Part shown: positions 6,328-24,358 of the stretch, piece after piece
Layout of the letters: each line of letters opens with the position of its first letter
Numbering within the stretch: the stretch's first letter is position 1
Virus record (IMG/VR): IMGVR_UViG_3300009008_000221
Coordinates: 1-25,833 of that record
DNA: 25,833 nt
Source of the DNA: a virus
Direction: 5' to 3' (one strand)
Translations under genes and position numbers: made by a program
Notes under the pieces: model-generated
Seen by the model: the letters and a program-made list of their open reading frames with translations, nothing else
What the model was told of the DNA's origin: nothing
The model's database searches: none

Positions 6328-6717
6328 ATGAACAAAAATAACGAAGAAGTAAGAAATGATTTTGACCAAGTAGTAATGCGCTTTGGGGATTTTTACCAAG
6401 AAGCAATTGGGTTTGATGTTAGTTTCTATTGCGGATATGACGACATCGATAATGTACTAGGACTTAAAGAAGTGTTGGAAAATCCAAAAGATACTATTTA
6501 CAATAAAGCGTGGTTAAACGCACTACCTGTGAAAGTATTTGATAAAATCGTCGACGAGTGTATCAAGGCATCAGTTAGTGCTACCGCTGATGGGTATTTG
6601 GATAATGATACTTGTATGGAACATATTACTGAACTCAAAGAATATCATGACAATGCCGATTTCATTAAAGATGAATTTTCCAAGGATTTTGCAACTTTAT
6701 GTAAGGTTAATGTATAA
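6328..6717 (+). CDS. Unknown early protein (129 aa), paralogue of the next gene
   Basis: Start ATG 6328 follows AAGGAGTTCAAA, an optimal ribosome-binding site, about 50 nt downstream of a consensus promoter, so strong early expression is expected. The protein is acidic with no membrane segment or catalytic motif I recognise. Residues about 13-110 align with the 123-aa product of 6779-7150: DFDQV/DFNQV, ENPKDTIYNKAWLNALPVKV against KDPRNTIYNPMWLSELPMKI, and GYLDNDTCMEHITELKEY against GYINIDTFMEYMNELQLY. The pair looks like an old tandem duplication. High acidity and early expression would fit a host-directed or DNA-mimic-type protein, but that is speculation. Confidence 0.82.
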   Translation: MNKNNEEVRNDFDQVVMRFGDFYQEAIGFDVSFYCGYDDIDNVLGLKEVLENPKDTIYNKAWLNALPVKVFDKIVDECIKASVSATADGYLDNDTCMEHITELKEYHDNADFIKDEFSKDFATLCKVNV

Positions 6718-6741: not shown

Positions 6742-6780
6742 AGGACTTTTCAAATGAAAAGTCCTTTTAGGACTTTTCAT
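6742..6780 (+). promoter_or_regulatory. Two-way hairpin switch over the start of the 6779 gene
   Basis: The ten-mer GGACTTTTCA occurs at 6743-6752 and 6770-6779, and its complement TGAAAAGTCC lies between them at 6755-6764. The middle arm can pair upstream (11 bp, 6742-6752 with 6755-6765, then a short T run, terminator-like) or downstream (12 bp, 6754-6765 with 6769-6780, TTT loop). The downstream fold buries both the AGGA site and the AT of the start codon of the 6779 gene. The folds exclude each other. A 17-codon frame (ATG 6754, MKSPFRTFHDFSRTNFK) starts in the middle arm, overlaps the next gene out of frame, and could be a leader peptide. Confidence 0.75.
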
Positions 6781-7150
6781 GATTTCAGCAGAACAAACTT
6801 TAAGTGACTTTAATCAAGTACAACAACAACTAATTGATATGTACATCGAACGACTTGATTTTAACATTACTGAATTTTGTAGTGATTACACAATCGGTAC
6901 TATTATCGGTAAAGATAAGGTACTAAAAGACCCACGAAATACTATCTACAACCCAATGTGGTTAAGTGAATTACCTATGAAGATTTACTTTGAACTCATT
7001 GATGCTTGTATTGAAACTTCAATTAATCACAAAACCAAAGGTTACATCAACATTGATACTTTCATGGAGTACATGAATGAACTTCAATTATATCGTCGTA
7101 ACCCAAACTACACTGATGAATTAGGTGGGTTAGTATCACCTGTGATTTAA
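6779..7150 (+). CDS. Unknown early protein (123 aa), paralogue of the 6328 gene
   Basis: The frame opens MISAEQTLSDFNQVQQQLID and contains NTIYNPMWLSELPMKIYFEL, the best conserved block shared with its upstream neighbour. No known domain is recognised. ATG 6779 is preceded by AGGACTTTTC, and both the site and the start codon lie in one arm of the 6742-6780 hairpin, so translation is probably conditional. It lacks the acidic C-terminal tail of its paralogue. The stop codon overlaps by 3 bases with the stop codon of the convergent minus-strand gene (shared TTA/TAA at 7147-7150). Two copies kept side by side, one under a separate structural control, suggest divergent timing or dosage. Confidence 0.82.
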   Translation: MISAEQTLSDFNQVQQQLIDMYIERLDFNITEFCSDYTIGTIIGKDKVLKDPRNTIYNPMWLSELPMKIYFELIDACIETSINHKTKGYINIDTFMEYMNELQLYRRNPNYTDELGGLVSPVI

Positions 7151-7773
7151 ACTTCAATGAATAATCGCTTAAATGCTCGCTCTTGGTCTTCTGATGCAGT
7201 TGATGCGTACAGGTTTTCTTCCATGTCTTTGAAGTAAATATCCCATCTATCTTGTAAGTAATAAAGTAAATGCTCAGCATCTAATGTACTTCTGAATTTT
7301 GCATCTTTGTGTCGTTTGATGTGCTTATCAACAACATCTAATGGGTACGACCTATCATCTTCGTGATGTACATCAACATAACCTTCACCATAAGTTTTGT
7401 AAAATTCAAGCATTGCTGTGAAAATATCATTTTCACCTAAATCACTAGCAGATGACACATCAGTTAATTTGTTAAATTCATCTTCGTTCATATAAAAATA
7501 GTCGTTGTTTAAATTTTTATCAAATACATGCACTGAAACTAATATTTTATTATCAATAACTTTAGGTTTAACCCAATGCAATGAAGTATCATCGATGTAA
7601 CTATGCACCTTACTAACTATAGTTTCGTTGTTATCATCGAATTTATACAAACTAAAGTTGTACTCATTACCCATGTAATGACAATCAATACCAGTTGAAC
7701 TTGCAGTTAGTCGTTCCCAAAGCAAAATATCCATAAGTGCTTCTTTAGTAATTACCTTTGATTTGTAAATCAT
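7147..7773 (-). CDS. Unknown protein (208 aa) downstream of the polymerase-like gene
   Basis: The frame is open from TTG 7791, but ATG 7773 (MIYKSKVITKEALMDILLWE) with GGGAAAATAT before it is the better start, resembling the GGGAAAA leader of the upstream gene. The product is soluble, acidic and mixed alpha/beta: HYMGNEYNFSLYKFDDNNET, then KILVSVHVFDKNLNNDYFYM, HHEDDRSYPLDVVDKHIKRH and EHLLYYLQDRWDIYFKDMEE. HHEDD is a possible metal-binding cluster, though nothing proves it. It lies about 30 bp behind the polymerase-like gene on the same strand, so a role in DNA replication or metabolism is plausible from position only. Confidence 0.7.
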   Translation of the reverse strand: MIYKSKVITKEALMDILLWERLTASSTGIDCHYMGNEYNFSLYKFDDNNETIVSKVHSYIDDTSLHWVKPKVIDNKILVSVHVFDKNLNNDYFYMNEDEFNKLTDVSSASDLGENDIFTAMLEFYKTYGEGYVDVHHEDDRSYPLDVVDKHIKRHKDAKFRSTLDAEHLLYYLQDRWDIYFKDMEENLYASTASEDQERAFKRLFIEV

Positions 7774-7803
7774 ATATTTTCCCGAGTTCAATTAAAGCGA
7801 TTA

Positions 7804-9174
7804 TTATAACGCTTTTACAGTAACAGTTAAGTTGAATTTCTTAAAACCTAATTCAATTTTGTTAATTTCAGTAGTTGTTAAATTACCCATGTAAACACCA
7901 TCATGTACTGAAAGTCTAATCTTACGCTTGTACTTCTTTAAAACAGTCTGCATTACTTTAGTTTCAAAGTGTTGATACATGTAATTAAGAACCTTGCCTT
8001 TCTTAAGATTTTTAGTAATGTCGCCATTAGTGTGCAATGATGGTAATTTCAACTTCTTAAGATGTTGATTATGTTTTACCAATGCTTCTTGAATTGCTTG
8101 TAATTCACTGTAGTAGCCTTTAACAAATGTATGTTTAACAAAGCGATTGTACTGTTCTACTGTAAAAGTACCATCGTTAACTAATGTGAAGTATTTTGCT
8201 TGACCTGGTGATTTAATTTCATGAATCACCGAACCCATTCCAATTGCTGTAATTCCTCGCTTAGCACTCTTAACATTTTCATCAGTACAATTATCCAACC
8301 CAAACACGAACTTAGTAACTTCATGTCTTATTGAACTTTTAAAGCGTTTGAATTGCTTCAAGTACTTGTGTGGTAGGTTGTATTTCTTGGCTTCTTGAAT
8401 TAAGAACGAGTTGCTACATGAATTAATATCAATTTCAGTACAACCTTTAAAACACGCTTTACGAACTTCTTTAGGTGTGAATTGAACATTAGTGTATCTT
8501 GAACCTCGATAATACTTACGCCCAAAGTCTGACATTCTAATAACATGTGGAATATAACCATTTGCTGAATTAATAAACAACAACTGCTTAGCAATTGCTC
8601 TATGTTTACGGTCTTCAGTAGTACAACTGAAGTCTTGCAATGCATCTGAATTAATGTAGATTTTATCAATCACATCATTCGGCTTAGTTAATGAATCAAC
8701 AACAACAGTAGCACTTGAACATAACATCTTAACTTCTGCATTTAACTCAGTTGATATTTGAACATCACTAATACCTATACGAGTATTACCATCTTTAACT
8801 ACAACTAGTAATGGGTTTACTTCTTGTATTGCTTTCCAAGTGATGTATGGTTTCTTATTAACATTAAACTTGTCATTATTAAACACTGGTTTATCAAACC
8901 TAAACTTGTACAATCGATTGTTACCTTGTCTATTAATATTACGCCATATCAACTGATTAATGACATTATTGTAAATCATTGTTACTTTATCAACTGCTCT
9001 GTGTAATGGGTAACCGTAATGCTTGTGTATTAGTTCAGATGTTTTGTTTATGTAATGTTGTTTGTGTGTTAACTTGTCTTTACTATTAACGAGGTGTGTT
9101 TCACACACCGTCGTACTGTCGATAGTGTTTGTGGTTTGTGGTGTGGGTAATGCTTGGGTGTTAGTGCGTGTCAT
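7804..9174 (-). CDS. Divergent family A-like nucleic acid polymerase core (456 aa)
   Basis: Three blocks in the right order and spacing resemble the palm/fingers of DNA polymerase I-type enzymes. Motif A-like: CTEIDINSCSNSFLIQEA with D249. Motif B/O-helix-like: IRHEVTKFVFGL with R283, K288, F291 and G292. Motif C-like: IRLSVHDGVYMG with H424 and D425, preceded by a helix (YMYQHFETKVMQTVL) where Pol I has its Q-helix. A-to-B (39) and B-to-C (137) spacings are close to Klenow (about 50 and 125). Residues 1-200 match nothing I know, and no 3'-5' exonuclease motifs are seen. Motif A also recalls the D-x-S-C-S of T7-type RNA polymerases, so a DNA polymerase, primase-polymerase or RNA polymerase role all remain open. 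Start ATG 9174 follows GGGAAAAAC. Likely the phage replicase. Confidence 0.65.
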   Translation of the reverse strand: MTRTNTQALPTPQTTNTIDSTTVCETHLVNSKDKLTHKQHYINKTSELIHKHYGYPLHRAVDKVTMIYNNVINQLIWRNINRQGNNRLYKFRFDKPVFNNDKFNVNKKPYITWKAIQEVNPLLVVVKDGNTRIGISDVQISTELNAEVKMLCSSATVVVDSLTKPNDVIDKIYINSDALQDFSCTTEDRKHRAIAKQLLFINSANGYIPHVIRMSDFGRKYYRGSRYTNVQFTPKEVRKACFKGCTEIDINSCSNSFLIQEAKKYNLPHKYLKQFKRFKSSIRHEVTKFVFGLDNCTDENVKSAKRGITAIGMGSVIHEIKSPGQAKYFTLVNDGTFTVEQYNRFVKHTFVKGYYSELQAIQEALVKHNQHLKKLKLPSLHTNGDITKNLKKGKVLNYMYQHFETKVMQTVLKKYKRKIRLSVHDGVYMGNLTTTEINKIELGFKKFNLTVTVKAL

Positions 9175-9346
9175 GTGTTGTGTTTTTCCCTATTATTAAA
9201 AAAAAATATATACTACCATAATATCCTGTAGTAATATACTTTGTGAATTATAACATTAAATCGATTTAATTGTTTGTAGTTATTTACACTTAACAGTGTA
9301 AAATATGTAAATACAGTTACATTATTAACAATATTAGGAAATTATA
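9175..9346. promoter_or_regulatory. Divergent intergenic region with two perfect palindromes; possible operator or origin
   Basis: Between the divergent polymerase-like and zinc-protein genes lie a 16-bp palindrome centred on ATCGAT (9255-9270) and TTTACACT-TAAC-AGTGTAAA (9283-9302). A third, looser repeat is TACTAC/GTAGTA around 9215-9235, and an A/T run lies at about 9199-9212. A minus-strand TATAAT sits at about 9248-9253 beside the first palindrome, without a good -35. The layout fits regulator binding sites for both genes or a replication origin beside the replicase gene. Confidence 0.5.
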
Positions 9347-9727
9347 ATGAAATATCAAGAAGCAGTAGATTTAGGACTTGACACTTATGTACCTGATAAT
9401 CCTTGCGAGCGTGGACATTATCATCGTAAAGTTAAAGGCAGGTATTGTGTTGAATGTAAGAAAATCACAGACGAACTTTACAGAAACGACCCGCTTAGAA
9501 AAGCCAAATTAGCAGAAAAACAAAGAGAGTATCGCGCAAGCAAAGGTGACGAATACCGAAAATACATTACCGAGTACATGCGTGAGTATCGTAAAACTGA
9601 AAGACACAAGGAATGGCGTAAGAAGTACTACGACGAAGTAGCATCACCATCGGCTAAGCGTTTACATAGAAAATTGTATTTAGAAGAACAAGAAGCAAAG
9701 CGCAAAGCACAACAAAATAATGAATGA
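9347..9727 (+). CDS. Basic zinc-binding-type protein (126 aa), HNH-associated N-terminal motif
   Basis: Residues 19-38 read PCERGHYHRKVKGRYCVECK, giving C20, H24, C34 and C37. This PC..GH...(R)...C..C motif is familiar from phage zinc-ribbon modules at the front of HNH or endonuclease VII-like proteins. Here no HNH block follows. The rest is a strongly basic helix-rich region with repeated E-Y-R-K patterns (QREYRASKGDEYRKYI, YMREYRKTERHKEWRKKYY). That composition suits nucleic acid binding. Start ATG 9347 follows TAGGAAATTATA. It overlaps the next gene by 8 bp, so the two zinc-type proteins are coupled. A DNA-binding accessory to the divergent polymerase-like gene is an inference from position. 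Confidence 0.75.
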   Translation: MKYQEAVDLGLDTYVPDNPCERGHYHRKVKGRYCVECKKITDELYRNDPLRKAKLAEKQREYRASKGDEYRKYITEYMREYRKTERHKEWRKKYYDEVASPSAKRLHRKLYLEEQEAKRKAQQNNE

Positions 9728-9968
9728 ACCTTTACGCAAGCACTTAGTAGAACATTACACATTTTCACAAGGTCATGGTAAACATTTAGATAAAACTGAA
9801 TTTGTTGTTGAAGGTAACACATTCATTAGACTTAAGAACTGTTCTAAGTACAAATGTAGTCATTGTGATAAAACATTTAAAGAAATGCCTGTTATTAATT
9901 GGCGTTTTAATAAAACAACAAATAAATGGCGAGGTAGGTGTAGTTGCAGAAAGAATTTCCTACCCTAG
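9720..9968 (+). CDS. Small cysteine-rich zinc-finger-type protein (82 aa)
   Basis: The start ATG 9720 overlaps the end of the previous gene by 8 bp. Cysteines C41, C46, C49, C74 and C76 (CSKYKCSHCDKTF and RGRCSCRKNF) could form one treble-clef or ribbon-type zinc site, with CSHCDKTF resembling a zinc-finger knuckle. Basic residues surround both clusters. No catalytic domain is visible. It is likely a DNA- or RNA-binding partner of the 126-aa product; the exact family is not recognised. The following 45 bp to the convergent 10014 gene contain only a weak inverted repeat. Confidence 0.75.
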   Translation: MNEPLRKHLVEHYTFSQGHGKHLDKTEFVVEGNTFIRLKNCSKYKCSHCDKTFKEMPVINWRFNKTTNKWRGRCSCRKNFLP

Positions 9969-23854: not shown

Positions 23855-24358
23855 ATGCATTTTCATACTAAGCGAGCAATTGACAGATTTCATTCCATGT
23901 ACGAACCAATTCCCGAATGTGGGTGTTGGCTTTGGACTGGCGGTACTGATAAAGACGGGTACGGTAGATATTCCCTGTTTAATCGTACTGAAAATCATTT
24001 GAGAGGTGCGCATCGCGTAAGTGTGTACCTTGACAACAGAAATCCAATTGGTAAAGTTGTTATGCATACCTGCGATAATCCTTCTTGTGTTAACCCAGCA
24101 CATTTGAAAGTTGGTACTATTCAAGATAACAACCTTGATAAACTTAAAAAAGGCAGACAATCCAAACTCAAAGGTTCTAGCAACGGTACTTCTAAACTTA
24201 CTGAAGTACAAGTTAAACAAATTCGCCAAGAAGCAGTAGTAGGTAATCGCACGGGTTACAATAACGGTAGCAACATCAAAGAAATTGCTATTAAATACAA
24301 TGTTAGTATTGAAACTATTCGTAAAATTATTCATCGTCATACCTGGAAGCATATTTGA
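23855..24358 (+). CDS. HNH homing-type endonuclease (167 aa)
   Basis: Encoded opposite to its neighbours, between the terminase genes. The block ECGCWLWTGGTDKDGYGRYS, AHRVSVYLDN and VVMHTCDNPSCVNPAHLKVG is the HNH_3-type core (H71, N80, H83, with C73 and C78). DNNLDKLKKGRQSKLKGSSN resembles the DNA-binding NUMOD-like linker, and the C-terminus (SKLTEVQVKQIRQE; IKEIAIKYNVSIETIRKIIH) adds a helix-turn-helix. Such free-standing nucleases are mobile genes that cut related phages and are often found beside terminase genes. No Shine-Dalgarno precedes ATG 23855, so the true start or its promoter is uncertain. It may also help packaging, as some HNH proteins beside terminases do; this is inferred from family knowledge. 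Confidence 0.9.
   Translation: MHFHTKRAIDRFHSMYEPIPECGCWLWTGGTDKDGYGRYSLFNRTENHLRGAHRVSVYLDNRNPIGKVVMHTCDNPSCVNPAHLKVGTIQDNNLDKLKKGRQSKLKGSSNGTSKLTEVQVKQIRQEAVVGNRTGYNNGSNIKEIAIKYNVSIETIRKIIHRHTWKHI

What the first reader, a model, noticed from the sequence alone, without database searches (positions are those of the whole stretch)
7804..9174. Compact, highly divergent polymerase-like protein as the only visible replication enzyme
Seen: the 456-aa product has a motif A-like DINSCSNS (D249), an O-helix-like R283-x4-K288 with F291-G292, and a motif C-like VHDG (H424, D425), in the order and approximate spacing of family A polymerases. Known: family A enzymes use these residues for metal and nucleotide binding, while T7-type RNA polymerases have a DxSCS motif A. 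Inferred: this is a stand-alone palm without exonuclease, with an unmatched 200-residue N-terminus that could hold priming activity. No helicase, primase or single-strand-binding gene is recognisable, so it may be a self-sufficient or host-assisted replicase of an undescribed branch.
Basis: partly seen in the sequence, partly recalled or inferred. Interest (0 to 1): 0.8.

Follow-up and report, generated by a model that had tools for sequence, protein, structure and literature searches.

The report
Divergent small phage family-A-type polymerase
A small bacterial virus carries a stripped-down DNA-polymerase-like enzyme, invisible to standard protein databases and related to an almost unstudied group of polymerases from viruses, plasmids and transposons, which is the only replication enzyme recognisable in its genome and probably starts (primes) copying of its DNA.

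Summary
The 456-aa ORF (window 7804-9174, minus strand) is real and encodes a divergent family-A-type polymerase. It matches nothing in Pfam, PHROGs, NCBIfam or PDB sequences, but four syntenic phage homologues (40-45% identity) keep the catalytic set: GR218-219, N229/Q231, R238, D249, C253, R283, K305, G314 and HDG 424-426. Profile comparison joins them through plasmid and phage proteins (E 4e-19) to DNA polymerase I (E 1e-8 combined; 2.6e-4 direct; best of 100 column shuffles 0.026). A five-sequence AlphaFold2 model (pLDDT 71) finds Klenow and other family A polymerases as its ten best PDB matches, and virophage replication proteins (TV-Pol type) among viral models. A tree separates it, with the plasmid/phage relatives, from canonical PolA (support 100/99). 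So 'polymerase' is supported. T7-RNAP kinship found no support (underpowered test). No helicase, primase or SSB was recognised in a near-complete 25.7 kb genome, and one near-complete sister phage has an unrelated ORF in its place. Best explanation: a TV-Pol-like primase-polymerase that starts replication on host machinery. The fold is near-certain; priming is inferred. New variant of a known kind, without a described family or biochemistry.

The parts
7804..9174 (-). Divergent family-A-type (TV-Pol-like) polymerase, 456 aa
   Evidence: ORF; 4 homologues; profile match to PolA; AF2 + Foldseek; tree
8650..9174 (-). N-terminal region, residues 1-175, unmatched by sequence; residues 1-35 modelled with low confidence
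   Evidence: No Pfam/PHROG/NCBIfam match; not covered by profile matches to relatives; AF2 pLDDT < 50 for 1-35
8482..8523 (-). GR(218-219)...N229-x-Q231 block: beta-hairpin arginine and the NLQN-like motif of family A
   Evidence: Invariant in 5; strands 208-214 and 220-223 in the model; aligned with E. coli TGRLSS..NLQN
8413..8430 (-). Motif A, D249-I-N-S-C-S254; catalytic Asp; Ser/Ala instead of the Glu 'steric gate' at D+5
8326..8328 (-). R283, invariant Arg of an early fingers helix
8233..8262 (-). Motif B (O-helix): K305-x8-G314, paired with E. coli K758 and G767
   Evidence: (helix 298-312)
7900..7905 (-). Motif C, H424-D425 (HDG-V-Y)
   Evidence: Invariant in 5; aligned with E. coli H881-D882
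7147..7791 (-). 214-aa acidic protein of unknown function, directly downstream on the same strand; co-conserved with the polymerase in two relatives
   Evidence: no family match
9082..9126 (-). Conserved hairpin with compensatory changes; in three relatives it lies just upstream of the polymerase ATG, here inside the first 31 codons
   Evidence: no Rfam match
9175..9346 (.). AT-rich (20% GC) divergent intergenic region upstream of the polymerase; candidate promoter/origin region
9347..9727 (+). 126-aa small Cys/His-rich protein, divergent neighbour conserved in the phage group
   Evidence: phrog_1081 E 6e-5; conserved in five relative contigs

Best explanation
The gene encodes a minimal, exonuclease-less polymerase of the family A right-hand fold, belonging to a divergent phage branch close to the TV-Pol group. 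Shown computationally: the palm and fingers core, two invariant catalytic aspartates (D249, D425), the template-side beta-hairpin arginine (R219) and the O-helix lysine (K305). Inferred: it acts in initiation of phage DNA replication. It binds single-stranded template at the phage origin, possibly with a partner protein, makes or extends a short primer (DNA, or RNA given the missing steric-gate Glu), and hands over to the host replisome, because the phage encodes no recognisable helicase, clamp or replicative polymerase. Confidence is about 0.95 for a family-A-type polymerase fold, 0.85 for TV-Pol-like kinship, and 0.6 for the priming/initiation role.
For: Four syntenic homologues at 40-45% identity keep every catalytic residue. 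hhalign: family vs PolA E 2.6e-4 over the whole palm/fingers; family vs bridge proteins 4e-19; bridge vs PolA 3e-8; combined vs PolA 1.4e-8; controls 0.026 or worse. A bridge HMM built without any sequence of this family finds only this ORF in each of the four contigs that carry it, E 2.7e-22 to 3.6e-18. AF2 pLDDT 71; the ten best PDB matches are all family A DNA polymerases, best Klenow 1kln E 1.3e-5, prob 1.0; virophage replication proteins such as Zamilon V6BPG7 E 6e-7. Context of relatives: a Polaromonas plasmid relative lies 10 bp upstream of repA; another relative lies next to transposases in Ma-LMM01, in line with Iyer 2008 (PMC2579912). A TV-Pol-group enzyme, CCPol, has shown primase-polymerase activity with its partner MP (PMC7581432). 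No other replication enzyme was found in this genome.
Against: No direct evidence of activity. No linked helicase, a hallmark of TV-Pols and CCPol. No demonstrated SSB-like partner. The TV-Pol RxxxK motif is not present in the O-helix (K-4 is V/I/T). CCPol uses dNTPs and needs MP to prime. Model confidence is moderate (pTM 0.55), with motif C at pLDDT < 50. One near-complete sister phage (G007, terminase 71%) has no polymerase, so the function is replaceable.
Confidence: 0.62

Rival explanations
1. It is a primer-dependent DNA polymerase (elongation or repair) rather than a primase; priming comes from the host DnaG or from transcripts.
For: The fold is closest to PolA; CCPol without MP only extends primers (PMC7581432).
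Against: No exonuclease, clamp or helicase; the motif A 'steric gate' Glu of DNA-specific PolA is Ser/Ala; the TV-Pol-like relatives sit beside initiator or transposase genes rather than replisome genes.
Confidence: 0.22
2. It is a single-subunit RNA polymerase that transcribes phage genes.
For: Superficial DxSCS-like motif A; no steric-gate Glu.
Against: No profile match to T7/SP6 RNAP (but PolA vs RNAP also fails there, so this test has little power); no RNAP among the ten best PDB fold matches, first one at E 0.25; it keeps the PolA-type N.Q block before motif A; motif A-B and B-C spacings (56 and 120) match PolA (53 and 124).
Confidence: 0.06
3. A polymerase-fold protein that lost catalysis and serves as an initiator or template-binding factor.
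For: Fast divergence; some secondary family A residues are missing (Y766-like position is M/L; R754-like position absent).
Against: Both aspartates, His, R219 and K305 are invariant across homologues only about 40% identical.
Confidence: 0.06
4. Chance resemblance; not a polymerase.
For: No match to any curated family, including PF00476, even at E 10.
Against: Independent profile, fold, motif-order and phylogeny results agree.
Confidence: 0.03

Closest known systems
TV-Pol family (Iyer, Abhiman and Aravind 2008, PMC2579912), e.g. virophage replication proteins and, by inference, Microcystis phage Ma-LMM01 gp030
   Same: Standalone 400-600 aa family-A-like palm without nuclease; beta-hairpin Arg; two catalytic Asp; mobile-element or virus setting; fold match to Zamilon and Qinghai Lake virophage proteins; linked through bridge proteins to gp030
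   Different: No D5-type helicase, resolvase or integrase recognised in the genome; no RxxxK in the fingers; extra ~175-aa N-terminus of its own; no direct profile match to gp030 alone (E 0.63)
CCPol-MP / PolA-SSB primases of Bacillota mobile elements (PMC7581432, PMC10061031)
   Same: Family A polymerase core on a mobile element, exonuclease reduced or lost; proposed priming role
   Different: CCPol is close to housekeeping Pol I and linked to MP and a helicase; here the core is far more divergent and neither partner is found
Canonical family A DNA polymerases (E. coli Pol I, T7 gp5)
   Same: Motif order, motif spacing and fold
   Different: Split from them with support 100/99; no exonuclease found; steric-gate Glu and R754/Y766-like residues absent; below Pfam PF00476 detection
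Uncharacterised Caudovirales proteins A0A6J5NAK1 and A0A6J5NHK2 (BFVD)
   Same: Best structural matches, E 1.7e-17 and 1.4e-15, over nearly full length, ~20% identity
   Different: Function and genomes not examined here
Polaromonas plasmid pW9NP1 and pH8NP1 ORFs
   Same: Same motif series; in pW9NP1 10 bp upstream of repA
   Different: Different N-terminal region; motif B keeps the Y-G pair lost here (M/L-G)

Membership tests
Family A DNA polymerase (fold-level superfamily) | Motif A Asp and motif C His-Asp | tested here: met
   D249, H424, D425 invariant in 5; H424-D425 aligned with H881-D882 and motif A with D705 of E. coli (combined profile for motif A)
Family A DNA polymerase (fold-level superfamily) | Right-hand palm/fingers fold | tested here: met
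   Ten best PDB matches all family A, best E 1.3e-5; model moderate (pLDDT 71)
Family A DNA polymerase (fold-level superfamily) | O-helix R-x3-K-x7-YG | tested here: inconclusive
   K305 and G314 invariant; R at K-4 absent; Y replaced by M/L
Family A DNA polymerase (fold-level superfamily) | Match to Pfam PF00476 | tested here: not met
   No match at E 10
Canonical DNA-specific PolA | Steric-gate Glu at motif A D+5 | tested here: not met
   S/S/A/S/S at residue 254
Canonical DNA-specific PolA | 3'-5' exonuclease domain or remnant upstream | tested here: not met
   N-terminus matches no family; profile match begins at the thumb/palm
TV-Pol | Beta-hairpin with conserved Arg before the palm | tested here: met
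   R219 between strands 208-214 and 220-223, invariant
TV-Pol | Two catalytic Asp in an RRM-like palm | tested here: met
TV-Pol | RxxxK in the fingers helix | tested here: not met
   R283 is followed by A/T at +4 in all five; K305 has V/I/T at -4
TV-Pol | No nuclease fusion | tested here: met
TV-Pol | Linked D5 helicase, resolvase, integrase or transposase | tested here: not met
   Only Walker A in the window is the terminase; no integrase found among ORFs scanned
TV-Pol | Phylogenetic grouping with TV-Pol-like proteins rather than PolA | tested here: met
   Split 100/99, but long branches and few sequences
PolA-SSB (CCPol-MP) primase | Co-encoded OB-fold SSB partner | tested here: inconclusive
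   214-aa downstream protein co-conserved in 2 relatives, no family match, not folded
PolA-SSB (CCPol-MP) primase | De novo DNA primer synthesis | not testable with these tools
   Biochemistry needed
T7-type single-subunit RNAP | Profile similarity to T7/SP6 RNAP | tested here: inconclusive
   No match, but PolA vs RNAP also gives none in this test
T7-type single-subunit RNAP | D-x-x-C-S register of motif A (C at D+3) | tested here: not met
   C253 is D+4 in all five

The most novel reading that the evidence does not exclude
A self-sufficient primase-polymerase of a new family-A branch that alone starts replication of a roughly 25.7 kb tailed phage without any phage helicase, SSB or RNA primer, recognising the conserved hairpin beside its own gene as its start site.
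Probability: 0.12. Interest if true: 0.85.

Novelty: new variant of a known kind. Interest (0 to 1): 0.56.

Why it matters
Nearly all known primases are DnaG or AEP type. TV-Pols were predicted in 2008 to be primase-polymerases, and the 2020 CCPol paper states that, to its authors' knowledge, no other proposed TV-Pol had been characterised biochemically (PMC7581432). A 456-aa standalone enzyme in a small tailed phage, with no helicase attached, is a convenient test object for whether this fold can prime by itself. It also shows that small tailed phages counted as 'lacking a polymerase' may hide one below database detection.

Tried and rejected
Direct searches with P0001 (Pfam, PHROGs, NCBIfam, PDB sequences, phages, viral contigs) found nothing or only weak hits; homologues were reached through the terminase of relatives. 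Single-sequence AF2 was useless (pLDDT 30). Both genome-contig scans and the viral scans with the tail protein and with the Polaromonas pair gave no relatives; the scan with a conserved tail-gene alignment gave four relatives but no new polymerase copies. T7-RNAP kinship: no support found, underpowered. Iterons or repeats in the intergenic region 9175-9346: none found. Direct profile match to Ma-LMM01 gp030 alone: negative; the link exists only through bridge proteins.

Full report
OBSERVATION. The ORF exists at 7804-9174 on the minus strand (456 aa). The record is a 25,833-bp virus record with a 119-bp terminal overlap, so a near-complete genome of about 25.7 kb. The other genes are mostly tailed-phage structural genes (terminase, portal, major head, tape measure). 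The closest cultured phages by terminase are Pelagibacter phages HTVC111P/112P/202P/026P at 52-53% identity; their annotations name no DNA polymerase and three of the four name a DnaD-domain protein. The host of the window phage is unknown.

HOMOLOGUES. Direct searches gave nothing. Relatives were found by their terminase, and whole-record searches then recovered homologues; the last one came from an alignment scan. The four homologues (L087, L088, L089, L092) are 40-45% identical to the window protein over the full length and lie in a similar gene neighbourhood: divergent 126-aa and zinc-type 82-aa genes on one side in most, the 214-aa gene downstream in two of them. Invariant residues in all five include G218 R219, N229, Q231, R238, F242, D249, C253, Q260, R283, K305, A310, G314, E404, H424 D425 G426 and Y428.

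WHAT IT IS. tblastn with family members gave two weak hits: a Polaromonas plasmid ORF (E 5e-3) and an unannotated Desulfovibrio phage ORF (E 1e-2). Both contain the same series GR..(L)Q..R..D / R / K-x7-YG / HDG. Further members came from the plasmid protein: pH8NP1 (E 4e-58) and an E. coli plasmid ORF (E 4e-4); it also weakly hit Gordonia phage Gustav DNA polymerase I (E 0.1). hhalign: this family vs bridge proteins E 4e-19 (prob 99); bridge vs PolA E 3e-8; this family directly vs PolA E 2.6e-4 (prob 42.5); combined vs PolA E 1.4e-8 (prob 95.5). The direct alignment runs from the thumb to motif C and pairs K305 with K758, G314 with G767 and H424-D425 with H881-D882; in the combined alignment the motif A aspartate also falls in register. 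Column-shuffled profiles reached at best 0.026 in 100 trials and the reversed profile 0.58. A bridge HMM containing none of this family finds these four ORFs, and nothing else, in the six relative contigs searched (E 2.7e-22 to 3.6e-18). Note that two of the four bridge sequences were themselves found through weak hits of this family.

STRUCTURE. A five-row AlphaFold2 run gave pLDDT 71.4, pTM 0.55, with strand 246-251 carrying D249, helix 298-312 carrying K305, and a hairpin 208-214/220-223 carrying R219. The ten best PDB matches are family A DNA polymerases (Klenow 1kln E 1.3e-5, prob 1.00; Taq; T7; Bst), and the first T7-type RNAP relative (yeast mitochondrial) is at E 0.25. In BFVD the best matches are two uncharacterised Caudovirales proteins, followed by several viral replication proteins including Zamilon and Qinghai Lake virophages, which belong to the virophage group typified by Sputnik, whose replication protein is TV-Pol type in Iyer 2008 (PMC2579912). 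Weak points: rmsd values are large, TM-scores are below or near 0.5, and residues 421-425 have pLDDT < 50; the distance D249-D425 could not be read out.

TV-POL LINK. The combined and bridge HMMs searched against Microcystis phage Ma-LMM01 pick out gp030 (506 aa; E 3e-6 and 7e-7), beside transposase genes gp031/gp032. Iyer 2008 reports a TV-Pol-containing element in Ma-LMM01; that it is gp030 is my inference. The link from this family to gp030 runs only through the bridge proteins (own vs gp030 alone E 0.63; bridge vs gp030 4e-8). A tree of 14 palm domains splits canonical PolA (4 rows) from this family plus the TV-Pol-like proteins (10 rows) with support 100/99; long branches make inner placements unsure. 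The TV-Pol features beta-hairpin Arg, two Asp and no nuclease are met; RxxxK and a linked helicase are not.

MECHANISM. Shown by computation: a polymerase core with an intact catalytic set. Inferred: a function in initiating phage replication. Reasons: no helicase, primase or SSB was recognised (only the terminase has a Walker A motif); in pW9NP1 the relative lies 10 bp upstream of repA; the TV-Pol-group enzyme CCPol is an experimentally proven primase-polymerase when joined by MP (PMC7581432, PMC10061031). The Glu at motif A D+5 that excludes ribonucleotides in Pol I (my knowledge) is Ser/Ala here, so use of NTPs is possible but untested; CCPol uses dNTPs. Against a stand-alone replicase: sister phage G007 (terminase 71%; 23.4 kb, with the tape-measure gene running across the contig ends) has no homologue and no other detected polymerase, and carries an unrelated 287-aa ORF at the corresponding place. 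The gene is therefore a replaceable module, which fits an initiation factor on host machinery better than an essential replicase.

HAIRPIN. A 45-nt element (ACTATTA..CACGACGGTNNNN...NNNNACCTCGTTAATAGT) lies just upstream of the polymerase ATG in L120, L112 and L092, and inside codons 17-31 of the window ORF (9082-9126). It has four pairs with changes on both sides, 98.6% of cells paired (2 of 500 shuffles reach this) and slid controls at 24-49%; only four sequences are involved and the double changes come from one of them (L120). No Rfam family. It may be an operator, a regulatory RNA or an initiation site; if it is a leader element, the true start of the window protein may differ from the ATG at 9172-9174.

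VERDICT. The protein is a divergent TV-Pol-like family A polymerase without a described family; the priming role is the best inference at about 0.6.

Noticed in passing
window 9082-9126 (minus strand); L120 ~690-735; L112 ~1185-1230; L092 ~9845-9890: Conserved covarying hairpin beside or inside the start of the polymerase gene, one match found in each of four phage lineages; no Rfam match.
   Followed up: partly
L114 14274-15137 (minus strand): Unrelated 287-aa ORF of unknown function occupies the polymerase locus in sister phage G007; possible alternative initiation protein.
   Followed up: partly
window 6328-6717 and 6779-7150: Two adjacent plus-strand genes encode proteins that look like diverged tandem paralogues (shared stretch around NP+DTIYN..WL..LP.K); unknown function.
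   Followed up: no
window 9347-9727 and 9720-9968: Small Cys-rich pair (126 aa and 82 aa, zinc-ribbon-like spacing), conserved and divergent to the polymerase gene; candidate replication or transcription accessory proteins.
   Followed up: partly
window 23855-24358: HNH endonuclease (phrog_6254, E 1e-27) on the opposite strand directly beside the large terminase gene.
   Followed up: no
L098 2209-4512: Unannotated 767-aa TV-Pol-like polymerase with an N-terminal HTH-like stretch and a C-terminal extension in Desulfovibrio phage 7757.
   Followed up: partly
L101 2377-3681; L103 3001-3300; L100 2072-3217: Cyanobacterial plasmids and a 377-kb E. coli plasmid carry ORFs with TV-Pol-like motifs annotated as hypothetical or not annotated; the cyanobacterial ones may be plasmid replication proteins.
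   Followed up: partly
L112 4959-5414: A relative phage encodes an aspartyl/asparaginyl beta-hydroxylase-like protein (PF05118, E 5e-17) near the polymerase.
   Followed up: no
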